Source: Georgenia subflava (GTDB lineage: Bacteria > Actinomycetota > Actinomycetes > Actinomycetales > Actinomycetaceae). Taken from it: a stretch of DNA of 64,000 nt. Numbering within the stretch: position 1 is the stretch's first letter; every line of letters begins with the position of its first letter. The notes under the pieces are model-generated. The model had not been told where the DNA came from. It was given only the letters and a program-made list of their open reading frames with translations, and did not search any database. Shown here piece by piece: positions 5,605-13,070 of this stretch. The stretch lies in NCBI RefSeq assembly GCF_009193155.1, contig NZ_VUKD01000003.1, forward strand, positions 62,001 through 126,000. The letters run 5' to 3'. A program made the position numbers and the translations under genes.

Positions 5605-6591
5605 CTAGAGGAGCTCGGCGCGCAGCGTCTCCGGCGACTTCGGCGAGAGCAGGACCGGCGGCACGTCGAGGACCGTCACGGCACCCACCTGACCCCGGCG
5701 GTTGAGCCGGTGCACCGCCCGCGCGTACGCGACGAGCACGCTTGCGGTGAACTCCGGGTTGCTCTGCAGCTGCAGGCGGTACTCCACCACCTGGGCGTTG
5801 CCGGCGCCGGTGGTGCCGGAGCGGATGACGAAGCCGCCGTGCGGCATCGCGCCGTGGTCGCGCCCGAGCTCGGCGGCGCTGATGAAGTGCACCTCGGTGT
5901 CGTAGTCGGCGAAGTAGTGCGGCATCGTGACGATGGCCTGCTCCACCTCGGCGGCGTCGGCGCCGTCCGCGAGCACCACGTAGCACTCGCGCCGATGCTT
6001 CTCACGGGTGCTGAGCTCGGGGCGGCTGCCGCTGCGGACGGCGTCGACCGCGACGTCGGAGGGAACGGTGTACTGCACGCCGCCGGCCACGCCCGGCACG
6101 CGGCGGACCGCGTCGGAGTGGCCCTGGCTCAGGCCCTTGCCCCAGAACGTGTAGGTCTCCCCGTCCGGCAGCAGCGCCTCGCCGTAGAGCCGGTTGATCG
6201 AGAACATGCCGGGGTCCCAGCCGCCGGAGATCAGCGCCGTCGTCCCGGCCGCGCGGGCGGGCCCGTCCACCGCCTCGAAGTACTCGGGGATGCGGGCGTG
6301 GGTGTCGAAGCTGTCGACGGTGCTGAAGTGCGCCGCCAGCGCCGGACCCTGCTCGGGCAGGTCCTCCTTGGAGCCTCCGCACAGGATGAGCACGTCGATG
6401 TCGTCGCGCCGGTCGGTCAGACCGTCGACGGGCAGGACAGGCGTGCTCGCATCCGGCGCGTCGATGTCGGCGGGCGCACGGCGGGTGAAGATGCCGACGA
6501 GCTCCATGTCCGGGTTCTGCCAGAGGGCGAGGGCGACGCCGCGCCCCAGGTTGCCGTAGCCGACGATGCCGATGCGGATCTTCTCGCTCAC
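5605..6591 (-). CDS. ddh: meso-Diaminopimelate D-dehydrogenase
   Basis: The 328-residue protein has the N-terminal NADP-binding motif GIVGYGNLGRG. Family-specific segments include ISGGWDPGMFSINRL, TFWGKGLSQGHSDA and YFADYDTEVHFI. The enzyme makes meso-diaminopimelate from tetrahydrodipicolinate in one NADPH-dependent amination, giving lysine and the cell-wall diamino acid. I chose the GTG at 6591 because GGGAGG lies 7 bases upstream and the product then begins at the Rossmann fold; the open frame further upstream has no similar support. It is convergent with dnaE2 across a 100-base gap. Confidence 0.95.
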   Translation of the reverse strand: MSEKIRIGIVGYGNLGRGVALALWQNPDMELVGIFTRRAPADIDAPDASTPVLPVDGLTDRRDDIDVLILCGGSKEDLPEQGPALAAHFSTVDSFDTHARIPEYFEAVDGPARAAGTTALISGGWDPGMFSINRLYGEALLPDGETYTFWGKGLSQGHSDAVRRVPGVAGGVQYTVPSDVAVDAVRSGSRPELSTREKHRRECYVVLADGADAAEVEQAIVTMPHYFADYDTEVHFISAAELGRDHGAMPHGGFVIRSGTTGAGNAQVVEYRLQLQSNPEFTASVLVAYARAVHRLNRRGQVGAVTVLDVPPVLLSPKSPETLRAELL

Positions 6592-6662
6592 TGCCGTGCC
6601 TCCCACTTTGCGTGTGCCGTGCCTCTGGAACGGTAGCGGCAGGGCCCACCGGGTGCGGGCCG

Positions 6663-6899
6663 TGCCCACTGCTCGACCTGGCCGAGCGCAGCAGCGCGAT
6701 CGACGAGCCGTTCCGCGGCGAGGCGGACCTCTACGACGAGCGCGGGCTTCCCCGGTGATCCTCGACACCTCGGCGATCGTCGCCACGCCTCAACTAGGGT
6801 GACGGCTTCTCCTACGCCCTTGCCGCCACCGCGGGTGATGTCCTGCTGCACAAGGGCGACGACTTCCGGCACACGGATATCGAACCGGCAGTCTCCTGA
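6663..6899 (+). pseudogene. Decayed vapBC toxin-antitoxin pair (VapB tail, VapC head and VapC tail)
   Basis: Three fragments are readable. A VapB-like C-terminus ends YDERGLPR at a stop at 6756-6758. A VapC start (GTG at 6755, overlapping that stop) reads VILDTSAIVAT, the usual PIN-domain head with the first acidic residue, then stops. From 6798, in another frame, comes a PIN tail with GDGFSYALA and KGDDFRHTDI, ending at 6899. About 80 central residues of a typical 130-residue VapC are missing and the frame shifts, so no toxin can be made. The VapB N-terminus is also gone. Confidence 0.8.
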
Positions 6900-6953
6900 C
6901 GTCTGGGGTATCGGGGCCTAGCCTCGGGAAGGCAGGGCTGCGATCATGGCAGG

Positions 6954-7595
6954 GTGGCTGGAGATGTGTTTATCTCTTATGCGCGTGCAGACCAGCTTTA
7001 TGTCGGTCAATTTGTGACCGAATTGCGTGCCATCGACATCCCGGTCTGGTTCGACGACGATTTAGAACATGGGCGTCGTTGGGCAGAGGACTTGGAAGAG
7101 CGCATCAACGGCTGCGCCGCCTTCGTTGTCGTGATGTCGCCTGCCTCAGCGAGTTCGGACTGGGTGCAGAGAGAGATAGCTCAAGCGGAACTCCGGCACC
7201 GAGAGATCTTCCCGCTCCTTCTTGCGGGCGAGCGATTCTTTCGGCTGTCGGACCGAGAGTTCGAAGACGTGCGCAGCCGTGCAATGCCTTCGTCCACCTT
7301 GATTGACAATCTGAAACGCACTGTGCGGGACTTCCGGCCTTGGATCAAGTTGCTTTATTGCATCAACTGTCACCAGCAATTCTATCGCGACAATTCGGCG
7401 AACTGCTCGTATCATCCTTCCGACCCGACCAATGTTGGCAACACCGGGCCGAGGGAGGACTATCGGGAGGTATGGAAGTACCCGTGCTGCGGACAGGTCT
7501 TGCTGACGGCGATAGATGATAGTGGGAGCGATCTTCCCCCGCCCCGGTCGCCCGGTTGCGTGAACCGCGCTCATCAAGCTGGCAGGTGGACGTAA
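6954..7595 (+). CDS. TIR-domain protein with C-terminal CHORD-like zinc-binding domain
   Basis: The protein has 213 residues. Residues 1-105 form a TIR domain: VFISYARAD at the start, VWFDDD, then SSDWVQREI, where Glu74 sits at the usual catalytic place of TIR NADases. Residues 136-207 hold eight likely zinc ligands, C136, C139, C151, H154, C178, C179, C202 and H207, in the order C..C, CxYHP, W..CC, GC....H. This resembles the CHORD domain of eukaryotic RAR1/CHORDC1 proteins, but assignment is by eye. Bacterial TIR proteins often cleave NAD+ in phage defence; that role is inferred. GC is about 50-55% in two stretches counted, far below neighbours, suggesting transfer. No partner gene is adjacent. 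The GTG start has a weak ribosome site and a possible leaderless promoter (GATCAT, 6942-6947). Confidence 0.85.
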   Translation: MAGDVFISYARADQLYVGQFVTELRAIDIPVWFDDDLEHGRRWAEDLEERINGCAAFVVVMSPASASSDWVQREIAQAELRHREIFPLLLAGERFFRLSDREFEDVRSRAMPSSTLIDNLKRTVRDFRPWIKLLYCINCHQQFYRDNSANCSYHPSDPTNVGNTGPREDYREVWKYPCCGQVLLTAIDDSGSDLPPPRSPGCVNRAHQAGRWT

Positions 7596-7956
7596 GTTTC
7601 GGGCTTATACGCCGGCGCCGGTGAGGCCGGGTCGTTGACCTGAAAGCGCTCCTGACCTGCGACGATACGGATTGTCGAGATCCGCGTAGTCGCACTCCAG
7701 GGAGCACCTTCGAGGTGAACGTTACGGGATCTGTCCGCGTACCCATGTCGAAACGACGGCCTCTGGCGCGGTGGGCCAGGCCGGGCGGGGTCCTGCTGAC
7801 CGAACCATCGCCGTGCCGGGGCTCGGGTCACCGCTCTCGTCGGCGCTGGCCCGTGGCGCCATCCGCCCGCGGTTCATGACCTGCCAAGGTGATCACCGAC
7901 CTTGAGCAGTCGTTGCGGGCACGGGCCGGTCGGGGTCTCGGCCGGGCACGGGTCGG
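7596..7956. other. Intergenic stretch, no convincing gene
   Basis: The lower GC of the TIR gene continues to about 7740 and then returns to chromosomal level, so the right border of the acquired patch probably lies near there. A minus-strand open frame at 7574-7831 (85 codons) overlaps the TIR gene tail, lacks a recognisable domain and has no clear ribosome site. I do not call it a gene. The stretch ends in a short tandem repeat at 7917-7971. Confidence 0.5.
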
Positions 7957-7971
7957 TCAGGAGTCTCGGCC
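7917..7971. repeat. Tandem repeat, 27-28 bp x 2, crossing the stop codon of the LOG gene
   Basis: Units 7917-7943 and 7944-7971 both read GGGCACGGG..GGTC..G, end TCTCGGCC and differ at a few bases. A third GGGCAC starts at 7972. The stop codon of the minus-strand gene (7957-7959) lies inside the second unit, so the repeat has duplicated the coding 3' end into the flank. Confidence 0.75.
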
Positions 7972-9084
7972 GGGCACCCCGGCCCCTGTGGGGTCGGTGT
8001 CCAGGACCGCGACGGCGTCGTCGAGGGTGTCGACGAGGTGGATGTGCTCGCCCATGTCCCGGCCGGCGCCGAGCGCCTGCAGCACCGGCCAGACAGGCAC
8101 CGTCGTCGTCCAGTGCTCGTGGCCGACGAGGACCATCGGCGCCACGGCCGAGGTGTCCGCGTAGTAGTTCTCGCACGCGTCCTGGAAGATCTCCTGCACC
8201 GTGCCCGCGGCCCCCGGCAGGAAGACGATCCCGGCCGTGGCCAGGTGCAGGAGGATGTCCTCGCGGATCGCGTTCTTGAAGTACTTGGCGATGTCCGTGG
8301 CGAACGCGTTGGGCGGCTCGTGCCCGTAGTGCCACGTCGGGATACCGACCGAGCGGGCGCCGCCGGGCCAGCGGTCGAGGACGTCGAACGCGGCGCCGGC
8401 CCAGTCCTGCACCGACGGGACGAACCCCGGCACCGCGGCGAGGGTCTCGAGCGCCTCCTCCAGCACCGACGAGGGCCACGTGGACAGGTAGGCGCCGAGG
8501 TTGGCCGCCTCCATGGCACCGGGTCCGCCCCCGGTGGCCACTGTGAGCCCGGCCCCCGCGAGGCGGTGGGCCAGGTGCGCCGCGGCGGCGTAGGGCGCCG
8601 ACCCGCGGGCGAGGGCGTGCCCGCCCATGATGCCGACGAGGTTCCGCCCGCCGACGACGTCACGCAGGGCGTCGTCGATCGAGTGGTCGTGCAGCGCCTT
8701 GGCCAGGCTCCGGTCGAGGTCCGGCTCCTGCTGCGACCAGGCGTACACCCGCGCGTCCAGCGTGTCCTCGTAGCTCGTGGCCAGCCGGTCGTACAGCTCC
8801 TGAGGCGTGTACAGGCTCGCGCGGTACTGGTCCACCGGCACGTGGGGAACCTCCGGGAAGACCAGGGCGCCCCGGGCCCGCAGGCTCTGCTCGTCGCCGG
8901 CCTCGAGCGCGCAGCCGAGGAATAGGGCGCCGGTCGGGTCGAGCCGGCGGAGGACGTGCCCGCGCCCGCGCAGGTCGACGGACTGCACGTGCCAGCCGCT
9001 CATCTCCAGGGCGCCGTCGGCGATGCGCTCGTCGAACTCCGCCAGGGACTCGACCTCGACGGTCCGACCGCGCTCCTGCTTCAC
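7957..9084 (-). CDS. LOG-family Rossmann protein (putative nucleotide 5'-monophosphate phosphoribohydrolase-like)
   Basis: The protein has 375 residues from the GTG at 9084. Its second half carries GGGPGAMEAAN and PGAAGTVQEIF, close to the PGGxGTxxE and GGGxGxMG/E signatures of the LOG (lysine-decarboxylase-like) family. About 130 residues precede this domain, which is longer than single-domain LOG proteins. LOG enzymes remove ribose phosphate from cytokinin nucleotides; the substrate in bacteria like this is unknown. No strong ribosome site is visible, so the start is a best guess. A tandem repeat crosses its stop codon. Confidence 0.75.
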   Translation of the reverse strand: MKQERGRTVEVESLAEFDERIADGALEMSGWHVQSVDLRGRGHVLRRLDPTGALFLGCALEAGDEQSLRARGALVFPEVPHVPVDQYRASLYTPQELYDRLATSYEDTLDARVYAWSQQEPDLDRSLAKALHDHSIDDALRDVVGGRNLVGIMGGHALARGSAPYAAAAHLAHRLAGAGLTVATGGGPGAMEAANLGAYLSTWPSSVLEEALETLAAVPGFVPSVQDWAGAAFDVLDRWPGGARSVGIPTWHYGHEPPNAFATDIAKYFKNAIREDILLHLATAGIVFLPGAAGTVQEIFQDACENYYADTSAVAPMVLVGHEHWTTTVPVWPVLQALGAGRDMGEHIHLVDTLDDAVAVLDTDPTGAGVPGRDS

Positions 9085-9154
9085 ACCGGCGAACCTATGG
9101 CCACCGTCGCCGAGCCGCACCCCTCCGGGCGGGACACCCGGTCGACGGCCGGGC

Positions 9155-12261: not shown

Positions 12262-12617
12262 GAAGAATCGGGTCCTCTCGGCACTGGATGGGTCTGGCAA
12301 CAGGCTAGGCCGTGACCCGCCCGAGAGGCCGTGAGGTCCACCACCGGCGGAACGTGGCATCGGCCACTCGGGTCGGGGACGTGCTGCCGGCCATGCCGGC
12401 CGACGCCCGTGCCGAGGTCCTTCCCTTCGTCCCGATGTCCTTCCCTTCGTCCCCACCGAGATCGTGGCGCGCACGGGGAGGCGCTCGATTCGCGCATGGG
12501 GAGGCGCTCGATACACGCACGGGAAGGCGCTCGATCACGCGTCGTGCTCGGGCACCGCCCGGCGCCACATGGCACGCTAGCCGCAGAGCACTTCGGGCAG
12601 AGAGGACAGGCACGCAC
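12262..12617. repeat. 356-bp gap with two tandem repeat arrays (18-20 bp x 2; 23 bp x 3)
   Basis: Between divergent genes. GTCCTTCCCTTCGTCCC occurs at 12417 and again at 12437. Then three head-to-tail 23-bp units occupy 12472-12494, 12495-12517 and 12518-12540, each built around GGGRAGGCGCTCGAT. The remainder looks like ordinary promoter-side DNA and shows no gene. AGAGAGGACAGG before 12618 is the ribosome site of the next gene. Confidence 0.8.
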
Positions 12618-13070
12618 ATGGGCAAGGTCGGGGCACTCATCAAGGTCGCGGCGGTCGCCGGGCCTACCATCGTGGAGCTGGTCCGGCGCTTCGGCCCGAC
12701 GCTCACGAAGCTGAAGAAGGAGAACCCCGAGGTCTTCGACGCCGTCGCCGCCCAGGTCCAGAAGCTCGCGCAGGCCCGCAAGAACAGCCGCGGGCCGGAG
12801 GGCATCCGCAAGCGGCTGAAGATCCTGCGCGACCAGGTCGCCTTCCTCTACTCCTCGGCTGACGACGCCGCCGAGCGCGACCGGGCCGACGGGTGGCGCG
12901 TGCAGCTCGACAGGCTCGAGGCCTCCCTGCCGGTGCTCGCGGCGATGGGCCGCAAGGCCGCCGCCAAGGAGACGGAGCACGTCAACCGGCGGATCGACGA
13001 GCTCTCCGAGGAGATCCTCAGCGCCTTCATCGACGAGAAGGAGGAGGACGCTCGCACGATCGAGCCGTGA
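12618..13070 (+). CDS. Conserved actinobacterial hypothetical protein, charged helical
   Basis: The 150-residue product starts at an ATG preceded by a good purine-rich site (AGAGAGGACAGG). It begins with a short hydrophobic stretch (residues 3-18), followed by long amphipathic helices rich in Lys, Glu and Arg (LTKLKKENPEVFDAV, ERDRADGWRVQLDRLEA) and an acidic tail. I do not recognise a domain. Codon usage is typical of the chromosome, which supports it being real. It lies 47 bases ahead of the mutarotase and may be co-transcribed. Confidence 0.75.
   Translation: MGKVGALIKVAAVAGPTIVELVRRFGPTLTKLKKENPEVFDAVAAQVQKLAQARKNSRGPEGIRKRLKILRDQVAFLYSSADDAAERDRADGWRVQLDRLEASLPVLAAMGRKAAAKETEHVNRRIDELSEEILSAFIDEKEEDARTIEP

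What the first reader, a model, noticed from the sequence alone, without database searches (positions are those of the whole stretch)
6954..7595. TIR domain joined to a CHORD-like zinc domain in a bacterium
Seen: eight Cys/His in the spacing C-x2-C, C-x2-H-P, C-C, C-x4-H after a complete TIR domain with a likely catalytic Glu74. Established: eukaryotic CHORD domains (RAR1, CHORDC1) bind two zinc ions through six Cys and two His in the order C..C, CxYHPG, WxCC, GC..G.H; RAR1 supports plant NLR immune receptors; bacterial TIRs often destroy NAD+ in phage defence. Inference: the gene, alone and low-GC, may be a single-gene defence protein in which a CHORD-like domain senses a trigger or recruits a partner.
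Basis: partly seen in the sequence, partly recalled or inferred. Interest (0 to 1): 0.72.

Follow-up and report, generated by a model that had tools for sequence, protein, structure and literature searches.

The report
Bacterial TIR protein with CHORD-like tail
A probably horizontally acquired bacterial gene encodes a TIR immune-type domain joined to a tail whose eight cysteine and histidine residues follow the order seen in the CHORD zinc domain of plant and animal immune chaperones, but no relative of the tail was found, so true kinship with CHORD is unproven.

Summary
Window 6954-7595 (+) encodes 213 residues: a TIR domain (Pfam TIR_2, E 5.2e-21) with Glu74 at the conserved catalytic position, then a tail with Cys136, Cys139, Cys151, His154, Cys178, Cys179, Cys202, His207. 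That is the order of the eight zinc ligands of RAR1 CHORD-II; three of seven spacings agree, four differ. Similarity to CHORD exceeds shuffles but is weak: 1 of 2000 shuffles reached the tail's CHORD-profile score, 11 of 2000 with Cys/His fixed. Pfam's CHORD model did not match, a PDB sequence search returned neither solved CHORD, and both structure predictions failed (mean pLDDT 38.5 and 33.4). No tail relative was accepted from phages, plasmids, viral contigs, species genomes (pattern scans) or sampled Actinomycetota, so ligand conservation is untestable. The gene is GC-poor (57.3%; window 72.9%), absent as a whole from the 8 congeners searched, and lies between a vapC-like remnant and a transposase-element-like remnant recognisable from 23 bases after its stop. 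No Hsp90, CHORD's partner, was found in the genome. Best reading: a foreign, single-gene TIR effector (probably NAD-consuming, phage defence) with a two-zinc sensor or docking tail. CHORD homology is plausible, not shown.

The parts
6954..7595 (+). TIR plus CHORD-like-tail gene, 213 aa, GTG start
   Evidence: GC 57.3% against 72.9% for the window; GC3 0.63 (first 330 bases) and 0.69 (tail) against 0.97, 0.89 and 0.98 for three window ORFs
6966..7274 (+). TIR domain, residues 5-107
   Evidence: Pfam TIR_2 E 5.2e-21, TIR E 3.4e-7; best PDB TIR E 4.2e-4
7173..7175 (+). codon of Glu74, at the conserved position of the TIR NADase catalytic Glu
   Evidence: alignments to chains 5teb_A and 3h16_A; the catalytic role is recalled from the family, not tested
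7341..7592 (+). CHORD-like tail, residues 130-213
   Evidence: eight ligands in CHORD order; no Pfam, NCBIfam or PHROGs family at E 10
7359..7370 (+). Cys136 and Cys139 codons (C-x2-C; C-x4-C in CHORD)
7404..7415 (+). Cys151 to His154 codons, C-S-Y-H, followed by P
7485..7490 (+). Cys178-Cys179 codons (W-x3-C-C; W-x-C-C in the two solved CHORDs)
7557..7574 (+). Cys202 to His207 codons (G-C-x4-H)
6726..6899 (+). remnant resembling a VapC-type toxin gene without its middle, directly upstream
   Evidence: 6798-6896 matches 153 plasmid records, best 67.7% identity; of the 8 rows listed 3 are annotated VapC and 5 carry no annotation there; 6726-6784 is up to 88% identical to DNA of other genomes of the order; reading the 5' piece as a vapC start is by eye; neither piece has a Pfam match at E 1
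7618..7891 (+). truncated remnant resembling the 5' end of a DDE transposase element
   Evidence: 7643-7891 is 70% identical to three places in genome G062; the 493-codon frame at one of them is DDE_Tnp_1_4, E 7.3e-81; alignment reaches back to 7618; the window piece itself has no Pfam match at E 0.01

Best explanation
A horizontally acquired, stand-alone TIR effector. The N-terminal TIR is probably an NAD+-consuming or NAD-signal-making enzyme using Glu74. The C-terminal 80 residues fold around two zinc ions in a cross-braced, CHORD-like way: by analogy with RAR1, Cys136/Cys139/Cys151/His207 hold one zinc and His154/Cys178/Cys179/Cys202 the other. The tail senses or docks onto a trigger and brings TIR domains together, which switches on the enzyme and kills or halts the infected cell. 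Shown: the ORF, the TIR domain, Glu74's position, the ligand order, atypical composition, absence as a whole from the congeners searched, mobile-element-like surroundings. Inferred: zinc binding, two-zinc topology, enzyme activity, the trigger, the defence role and the horizontal origin.
For: TIR_2 E 5.2e-21 with Glu74 aligned. Matches of the TIR part to PADLOC defence models, best E 2.3e-13. Ligand order equal to that of RAR1 CHORD-II in PMC2935968. Alignment to CHORDs above shuffles. Low GC confined to the gene: 57.3% against 69.4% and 69.6% in the flanks. The whole protein is in 1 of 9 genomes of the genus, its own. Flanked by a vapC-like remnant and a transposase-element-like remnant.
Against: No homologue of the tail, so no conservation evidence. 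The CHORD similarity is weak. Both structure models are unusable. None of nine nearby ORFs matches a PADLOC model, so no defence neighbourhood or partner. The stop lies 23 bases before recognisable element sequence, so the protein may be cut short.
Confidence: 0.42

Rival explanations
1. The tail is a zinc domain of another origin (treble clef, zinc ribbon or RING-like cross-brace) that reached a CHORD-like ligand order by convergence; the protein still works as a TIR effector with a zinc sensor or docking tail.
For: Four of seven ligand spacings differ, with 9 and 7 extra residues in the two longer loops. With Cys/His fixed, 11 of 2000 shuffles still score as well against a CHORD profile, and one other ORF of 4162, in L062, scores higher than this gene's ORF. 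Pfam CHORD does not match. PMC2935968 calls the CHORD structure reminiscent of the RING finger (legend seen).
Against: Shared non-ligand residues (Q and F after the second Cys, N before the third, H-P, W before C-C) and 2 of 3000 fixed-ligand shuffles for the summed score at 7/1, 5 of 3000 at 11/1. No other zinc family came up in Pfam at E 10.
Confidence: 0.33
2. The gene is a stranded, possibly C-terminally cut remnant on mobile-element debris with no present function.
For: It sits between a broken vapC-like gene and a truncated transposase-like element whose recognisable sequence starts 23 bases after the stop, at a place where genus synteny is broken. The one promoter-like site found in 6600-8000 is inside the gene, and no terminator-like site was found.
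Against: The ORF is intact, the TIR match is nearly complete, and all eight ligands and Glu74 are in one frame; low GC is confined to the gene.
Confidence: 0.17
3. A TIR signal-maker of Thoeris kind that feeds a separate effector elsewhere in the genome, the tail being the phage sensor.
For: Pfam ThsB_TIR matches at E 4.3e-5, just above its cut-off (24.3 against 21.2 bits); several PADLOC ThsB models match weakly.
Against: TIR_2 fits far better; no PADLOC match, ThsA included, in nine nearby ORFs. The genome as a whole was not searched for ThsA.
Confidence: 0.08

Closest known systems
CHORD domain of RAR1 / CHORDC1 (Pfam PF04968; PDB 2XCM, 2YRT)
   Same: Order of the eight ligands C, C, C, H, C-C, C, H; spacings C-x2-H, C-C and C-x4-H; H-P after the third Cys; W shortly before C-C; as in CHORDC1 also C-x-Y-H-P and G-C.
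   Different: First pair C-x2-C not C-x4-C; loops of 11, 23 and 22 residues instead of 13, 14 and 15; no FHD motif; single, not paired; fused to a TIR; in a bacterium in which no Hsp90 was found; not detected by the Pfam model.
Bacterial TIR effectors of phage defence (e.g. TIR-SAVED of CBASS, Thoeris ThsB)
   Same: TIR domain with the conserved Glu; matches to PADLOC models over the TIR part, best SAVED_TIR E 2.3e-13.
   Different: None of the 15 listed models matches beyond residue 94; no PADLOC match in nine nearby ORFs.
Plant TIR-NLR / RAR1 immunity
   Same: Uses TIR domains and, in a separate protein, CHORD domains (passages of PMC5776081 and PMC2935968).
   Different: There CHORD works with Hsp90 and SGT1 in a protein apart from the NLR; here TIR and tail are one chain and Hsp90 was not found.

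Membership tests
TIR domain (Pfam TIR_2) | profile match above the curated cut-off | tested here: met
   75.8 bits against 28, residues 5-107
TIR domain (Pfam TIR_2) | conserved Glu of the catalytic TIRs | tested here: met
   Glu74 aligned with a Glu of chains 5teb_A and 3h16_A
TIR domain (Pfam TIR_2) | NAD+ hydrolysis or cyclisation (a feature of catalytic TIRs only) | not testable with these tools
   needs an enzyme assay
CHORD (Pfam PF04968) | profile match above the curated cut-off | tested here: not met
   no match at E 10 in the own genome; no Pfam family for the tail at E 10, HMMER filters on; 0 of 396 Actinomycetota genomes, the own one included, at E 0.01
CHORD (Pfam PF04968) | eight zinc ligands in the order C, C, C, H, C, C, C, H | tested here: met
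CHORD (Pfam PF04968) | ligand spacing 4-13-2-14-0-15-4 of RAR1 CHORD-II | tested here: not met
   2-11-2-23-0-22-4; three of seven equal; strict pattern does not match the tail
CHORD (Pfam PF04968) | two-zinc fold with the reported ligand pairing | tested here: inconclusive
   models at mean pLDDT 38.5 (tail) and 33.4 (whole), no use
CHORD (Pfam PF04968) | tandem pair in one protein, as stated for the plant and animal proteins identified in PMC2935968 | tested here: not met
   one set of ligands in 213 aa (passage)
CHORD (Pfam PF04968) | binding of Hsp90 | tested here: inconclusive
   no Pfam HSP90 match at E 0.001 in the own genome (98.74% complete), while 5 of 14 control genomes match; binding itself is not testable here
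Known anti-phage systems (PADLOC) | match over most of a model, with the system's partners | tested here: not met
   only TIR-part matches, mostly to longer models; nine nearby ORFs without a PADLOC match

The most novel reading that the evidence does not exclude
A true CHORD-fold domain exists in bacteria and is fused to a TIR enzyme, so the TIR and CHORD parts that work in separate proteins of plant NLR immunity occur in one bacterial defence protein. This would suggest either a prokaryotic source of CHORD or a transfer from a eukaryote.
Probability: 0.2. Interest if true: 0.75.

Novelty: new variant of a known kind. Interest (0 to 1): 0.42.

Why it matters
If the tail has the CHORD fold, CHORD is not limited to eukaryotes and can sit next to a TIR in a genome where no Hsp90 was found, which would offer a simple one-protein system for asking what CHORD does to TIR signalling. 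If it is convergent, it is still an undescribed zinc-type tail on a bacterial TIR, as far as the searches went: eight literature searches listed no paper that appears to describe one; only listings and abstract openings were seen, plus passages of three papers.

Tried and rejected
Homologue searches of the tail. tblastn of plasmids at E 10 gave 1 record at E 3, which covers 45% of the query and lies just before an annotated gene. Phages at E 10: 3 records, best E about 1, two of them inside an RNA ligase gene. Sampled genomes with the tail at E 0.1: 42 of 296 genomes of the class, the own one included; at E 0.01: 5 of 297 of the order, the own one included. Only the best places became loci (15 of 48, all 5). 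A ligand-pattern script over all 92 loci found the pattern only in stretches of the own gene (one search had done so for the first 36). The other 33 places were not read and are taken as noise from their scores.

One phylum-sample match of the whole protein spanned residues 58-155 (G010, E 7.5e-5); its 585-codon frame has no such Cys/His pattern and it was dropped.

Viral contigs: five scans. Four gave no relative. One search gave one, L037, a 57-codon frame with no C-C or later ligands, dropped as chance. Genome contigs: two scans, 62 and 86 pattern stretches, none confirmed. These scans need a match to a short peptide pattern plus tblastn E 1e-3, so distant relatives would be missed. No eukaryotic sequence collection was at hand apart from PDB.

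A weak PDB match of the tail to an apical complex lysine methyltransferase (E 0.58) does not align the Cys ligands and was rejected. Structure prediction of tail and whole protein failed, so no fold search was run. A tail plus CHORD profile (A1) matched 1 of 394 class genomes at E 0.01, the own one, which is in the profile by construction. One row of the GC3 table (12560-13070) was out of frame and is not used. A search of plasmids with a minus-strand ORF overlapping the gene's 3' end found nothing.

Full report
What is there. Window 6954-7595 (+) is an open frame of 213 codons from a GTG. Residues 5-107 are a TIR domain: Pfam TIR_2 E 5.2e-21, TIR E 3.4e-7, ThsB_TIR E 4.3e-5. PDB TIRs match at E 4.2e-4 and weaker, and Glu74 falls on a Glu in the alignments to RPP1 (5teb_A) and a bacterial TIR (3h16_A). 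That this Glu is catalytic in NADase TIRs is recalled knowledge. PADLOC matches are limited to the TIR part, best a SAVED-TIR model at E 2.3e-13.

The tail. Residues 130-213 hold Cys136, Cys139, Cys151, His154, Cys178, Cys179, Cys202 and His207; His140 is the only other Cys or His in that stretch. In RAR1 CHORD-II one zinc is held by His181, Cys196, Cys197 and Cys213 and the other by Cys159, Cys164, Cys178 and His218 (PMC2935968, passage). The order is the same. The spacing is 2, 11, 2, 23, 0, 22, 4 in the tail and 4, 13, 2, 14, 0, 15, 4 in RAR1, so three of seven intervals agree. Residues shared with both solved CHORDs besides ligands are the Q and F after the second Cys, an N before the third Cys, the P after the first His and a W before C-C. 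The alignment does not align the first Cys or that W; the pairwise alignments do.

Is it CHORD? Local alignment scores of the tail against 2YRT and 2XCM, summed, were reached by 0 of 3000 full shuffles and 2 of 3000 shuffles with Cys and His fixed at gap cost 7/1, and by 1 and 5 of 3000 at 11/1. Taken singly with Cys and His fixed, 2YRT was reached by 24 (7/1) and 14 (11/1) and 2XCM by 3 and 48 of 3000. A profile of the two CHORDs gives the tail 7.6 bits (9.1 for the whole frame, E 0.78); 1 of 2000 full shuffles and 11 of 2000 fixed-ligand shuffles reach 7.6 (80 and 3 shuffles were not scored), and among 4162 distinct ORFs of the window and fetched loci one, in L062, scores higher than this gene's at 10.0 bits. 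BLASTP against 2YRT gives E 0.003 for that single comparison, over the first part of the tail. On the other side, Pfam's CHORD model finds nothing in the genome at E 10, the tail has no family in Pfam, NCBIfam or PHROGs at E 10 (HMMER's filters drop most weak matches), and a phmmer search of PDB at E 10 returns neither CHORD. All these comparisons were made after CHORD had been proposed from the same residues, so the shuffle counts flatter the idea. I read this as a real CHORD-like ligand layout with modest extra sequence support, short of proof of homology.

Relatives. Elsewhere the protein matches by its TIR part: 26 of 396 genomes of the phylum at E 0.001, the own genome included, and 19 of 72,556 plasmid records with none covering 80% of the query; no phage record at E 0.01. 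One match (G010) spans residues 58-155 but its frame lacks the ligand pattern. In the genus the whole protein is in 1 of 9 genomes, its own; two congeners have other TIRs. The tail has no accepted relative in any search (the single L037 match was dropped). No CHORD match was found in 396 Actinomycetota genomes at E 0.01 (one of 14 controls, Thermotoga maritima, gave a match below the cut-off), and no Hsp90 in the own genome.

Setting. The gene has 57.3% GC, the 314 bases upstream 69.4% and 405 bases downstream 69.6%, the window 72.9%; none of 1268 same-length slices is as GC-poor. GC at third positions is 0.63 (first 330 bases) and 0.69 (tail) against 0.97, 0.89 and 0.98 in three ORFs of the window. 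On the left lies a diaminopimelate dehydrogenase gene (DAPDH_C E 1.4e-74; conserved DNA to about 6632), then a vapC-like remnant: 6798-6896 matches 153 plasmid records, best 67.7% identity, VapC where the listed rows are annotated. On the right 7643-7891 is 70% identical to three places in genome G062; two of these were read and carry a 493-codon frame, one tested and a DDE transposase. The alignment reaches back to 7618, so the element's end may touch the TIR gene's 3' end. Then comes a LOG/SLOG-type gene (LDcluster4 E 1.9e-7; conserved DNA from about 8001). Five of eight congeners keep good matches to both flanking genes: in two they lie on one contig about 1.6 and 2.4 million bases apart, in three on different contigs. 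The eleven stretches fetched around these genes share with the first 20 kb of the window only the gene in question, in matches of at least 150 bases, apart from one 390-base match in L066. Nine ORFs between 2016 and 16330 match no PADLOC model at E 0.001. So the gene sits in a rearranged, mobile-element-marked spot, typical of acquired defence genes and also of genes being lost.

Mechanism. Most likely the tail is a two-zinc sensor or docking module and the TIR an NAD-consuming or signal-making enzyme switched on when TIRs come together. The enzyme step rests on the TIR family and Glu74, the zinc step on the ligands, and the trigger is unknown. Canonical CHORD action through Hsp90 is not expected here because no Hsp90 was found.

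Literature. Searches for CHORD with TIR and bacteria (seven papers listed), CHORD-like with TIR (none), RAR1 and CHORD with prokaryote terms (11 listed, two), CHORD with bacterial genomes and horizontal transfer (none), TIR with zinc ribbon, NADase and defence (15 of 36 listed), TIR with zinc finger and antiphage (none) and CHORD with TIR, fusion and zinc (two) listed no paper that appears to report a bacterial CHORD or a TIR-CHORD fusion. I saw listings and abstract openings, and passages of PMC7075850 (a TIR survey, in whose main text 'zinc' does not occur and the shown 'chord' passages are chordates), PMC5776081 and PMC2935968. The library lacks most subscription papers, so this is weak evidence of absence.

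Verdict. Filed as a new variant of bacterial TIR effectors with a CHORD-like, not proven CHORD, tail.

Noticed in passing
window 6726-6899: Remnant resembling a VapC-type toxin gene whose middle is missing, with what reads by eye as a VapB-like end just before it.
   Followed up: partly
window 7618-7891: Truncated remnant resembling the 5' end of a DDE transposase element, recognisable from 23 bases after the TIR gene's stop; three related places occur in genome G062, of which two were read and have a 493-codon frame.
   Followed up: partly
window 5605-9097: Synteny break: diaminopimelate dehydrogenase and LOG-type gene, neighbours here, are 1.6 and 2.4 million bases apart in two congeners and on different contigs in three more.
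   Followed up: partly
L040 1501-1764 (G000 contig C6): A second TIR gene in the same genome (350-codon open frame) without a Cys-rich tail.
   Followed up: no
L091 2916-6918 (Streptomyces clavuligerus plasmid): Two adjacent TIR genes followed by an SPFH-domain gene, a possible multi-gene TIR system.
   Followed up: no
L090 1-6570 (Chlorohelix plasmid): Swt1-type HEPN gene, TIR gene and serine/threonine kinase gene in a row.
   Followed up: no
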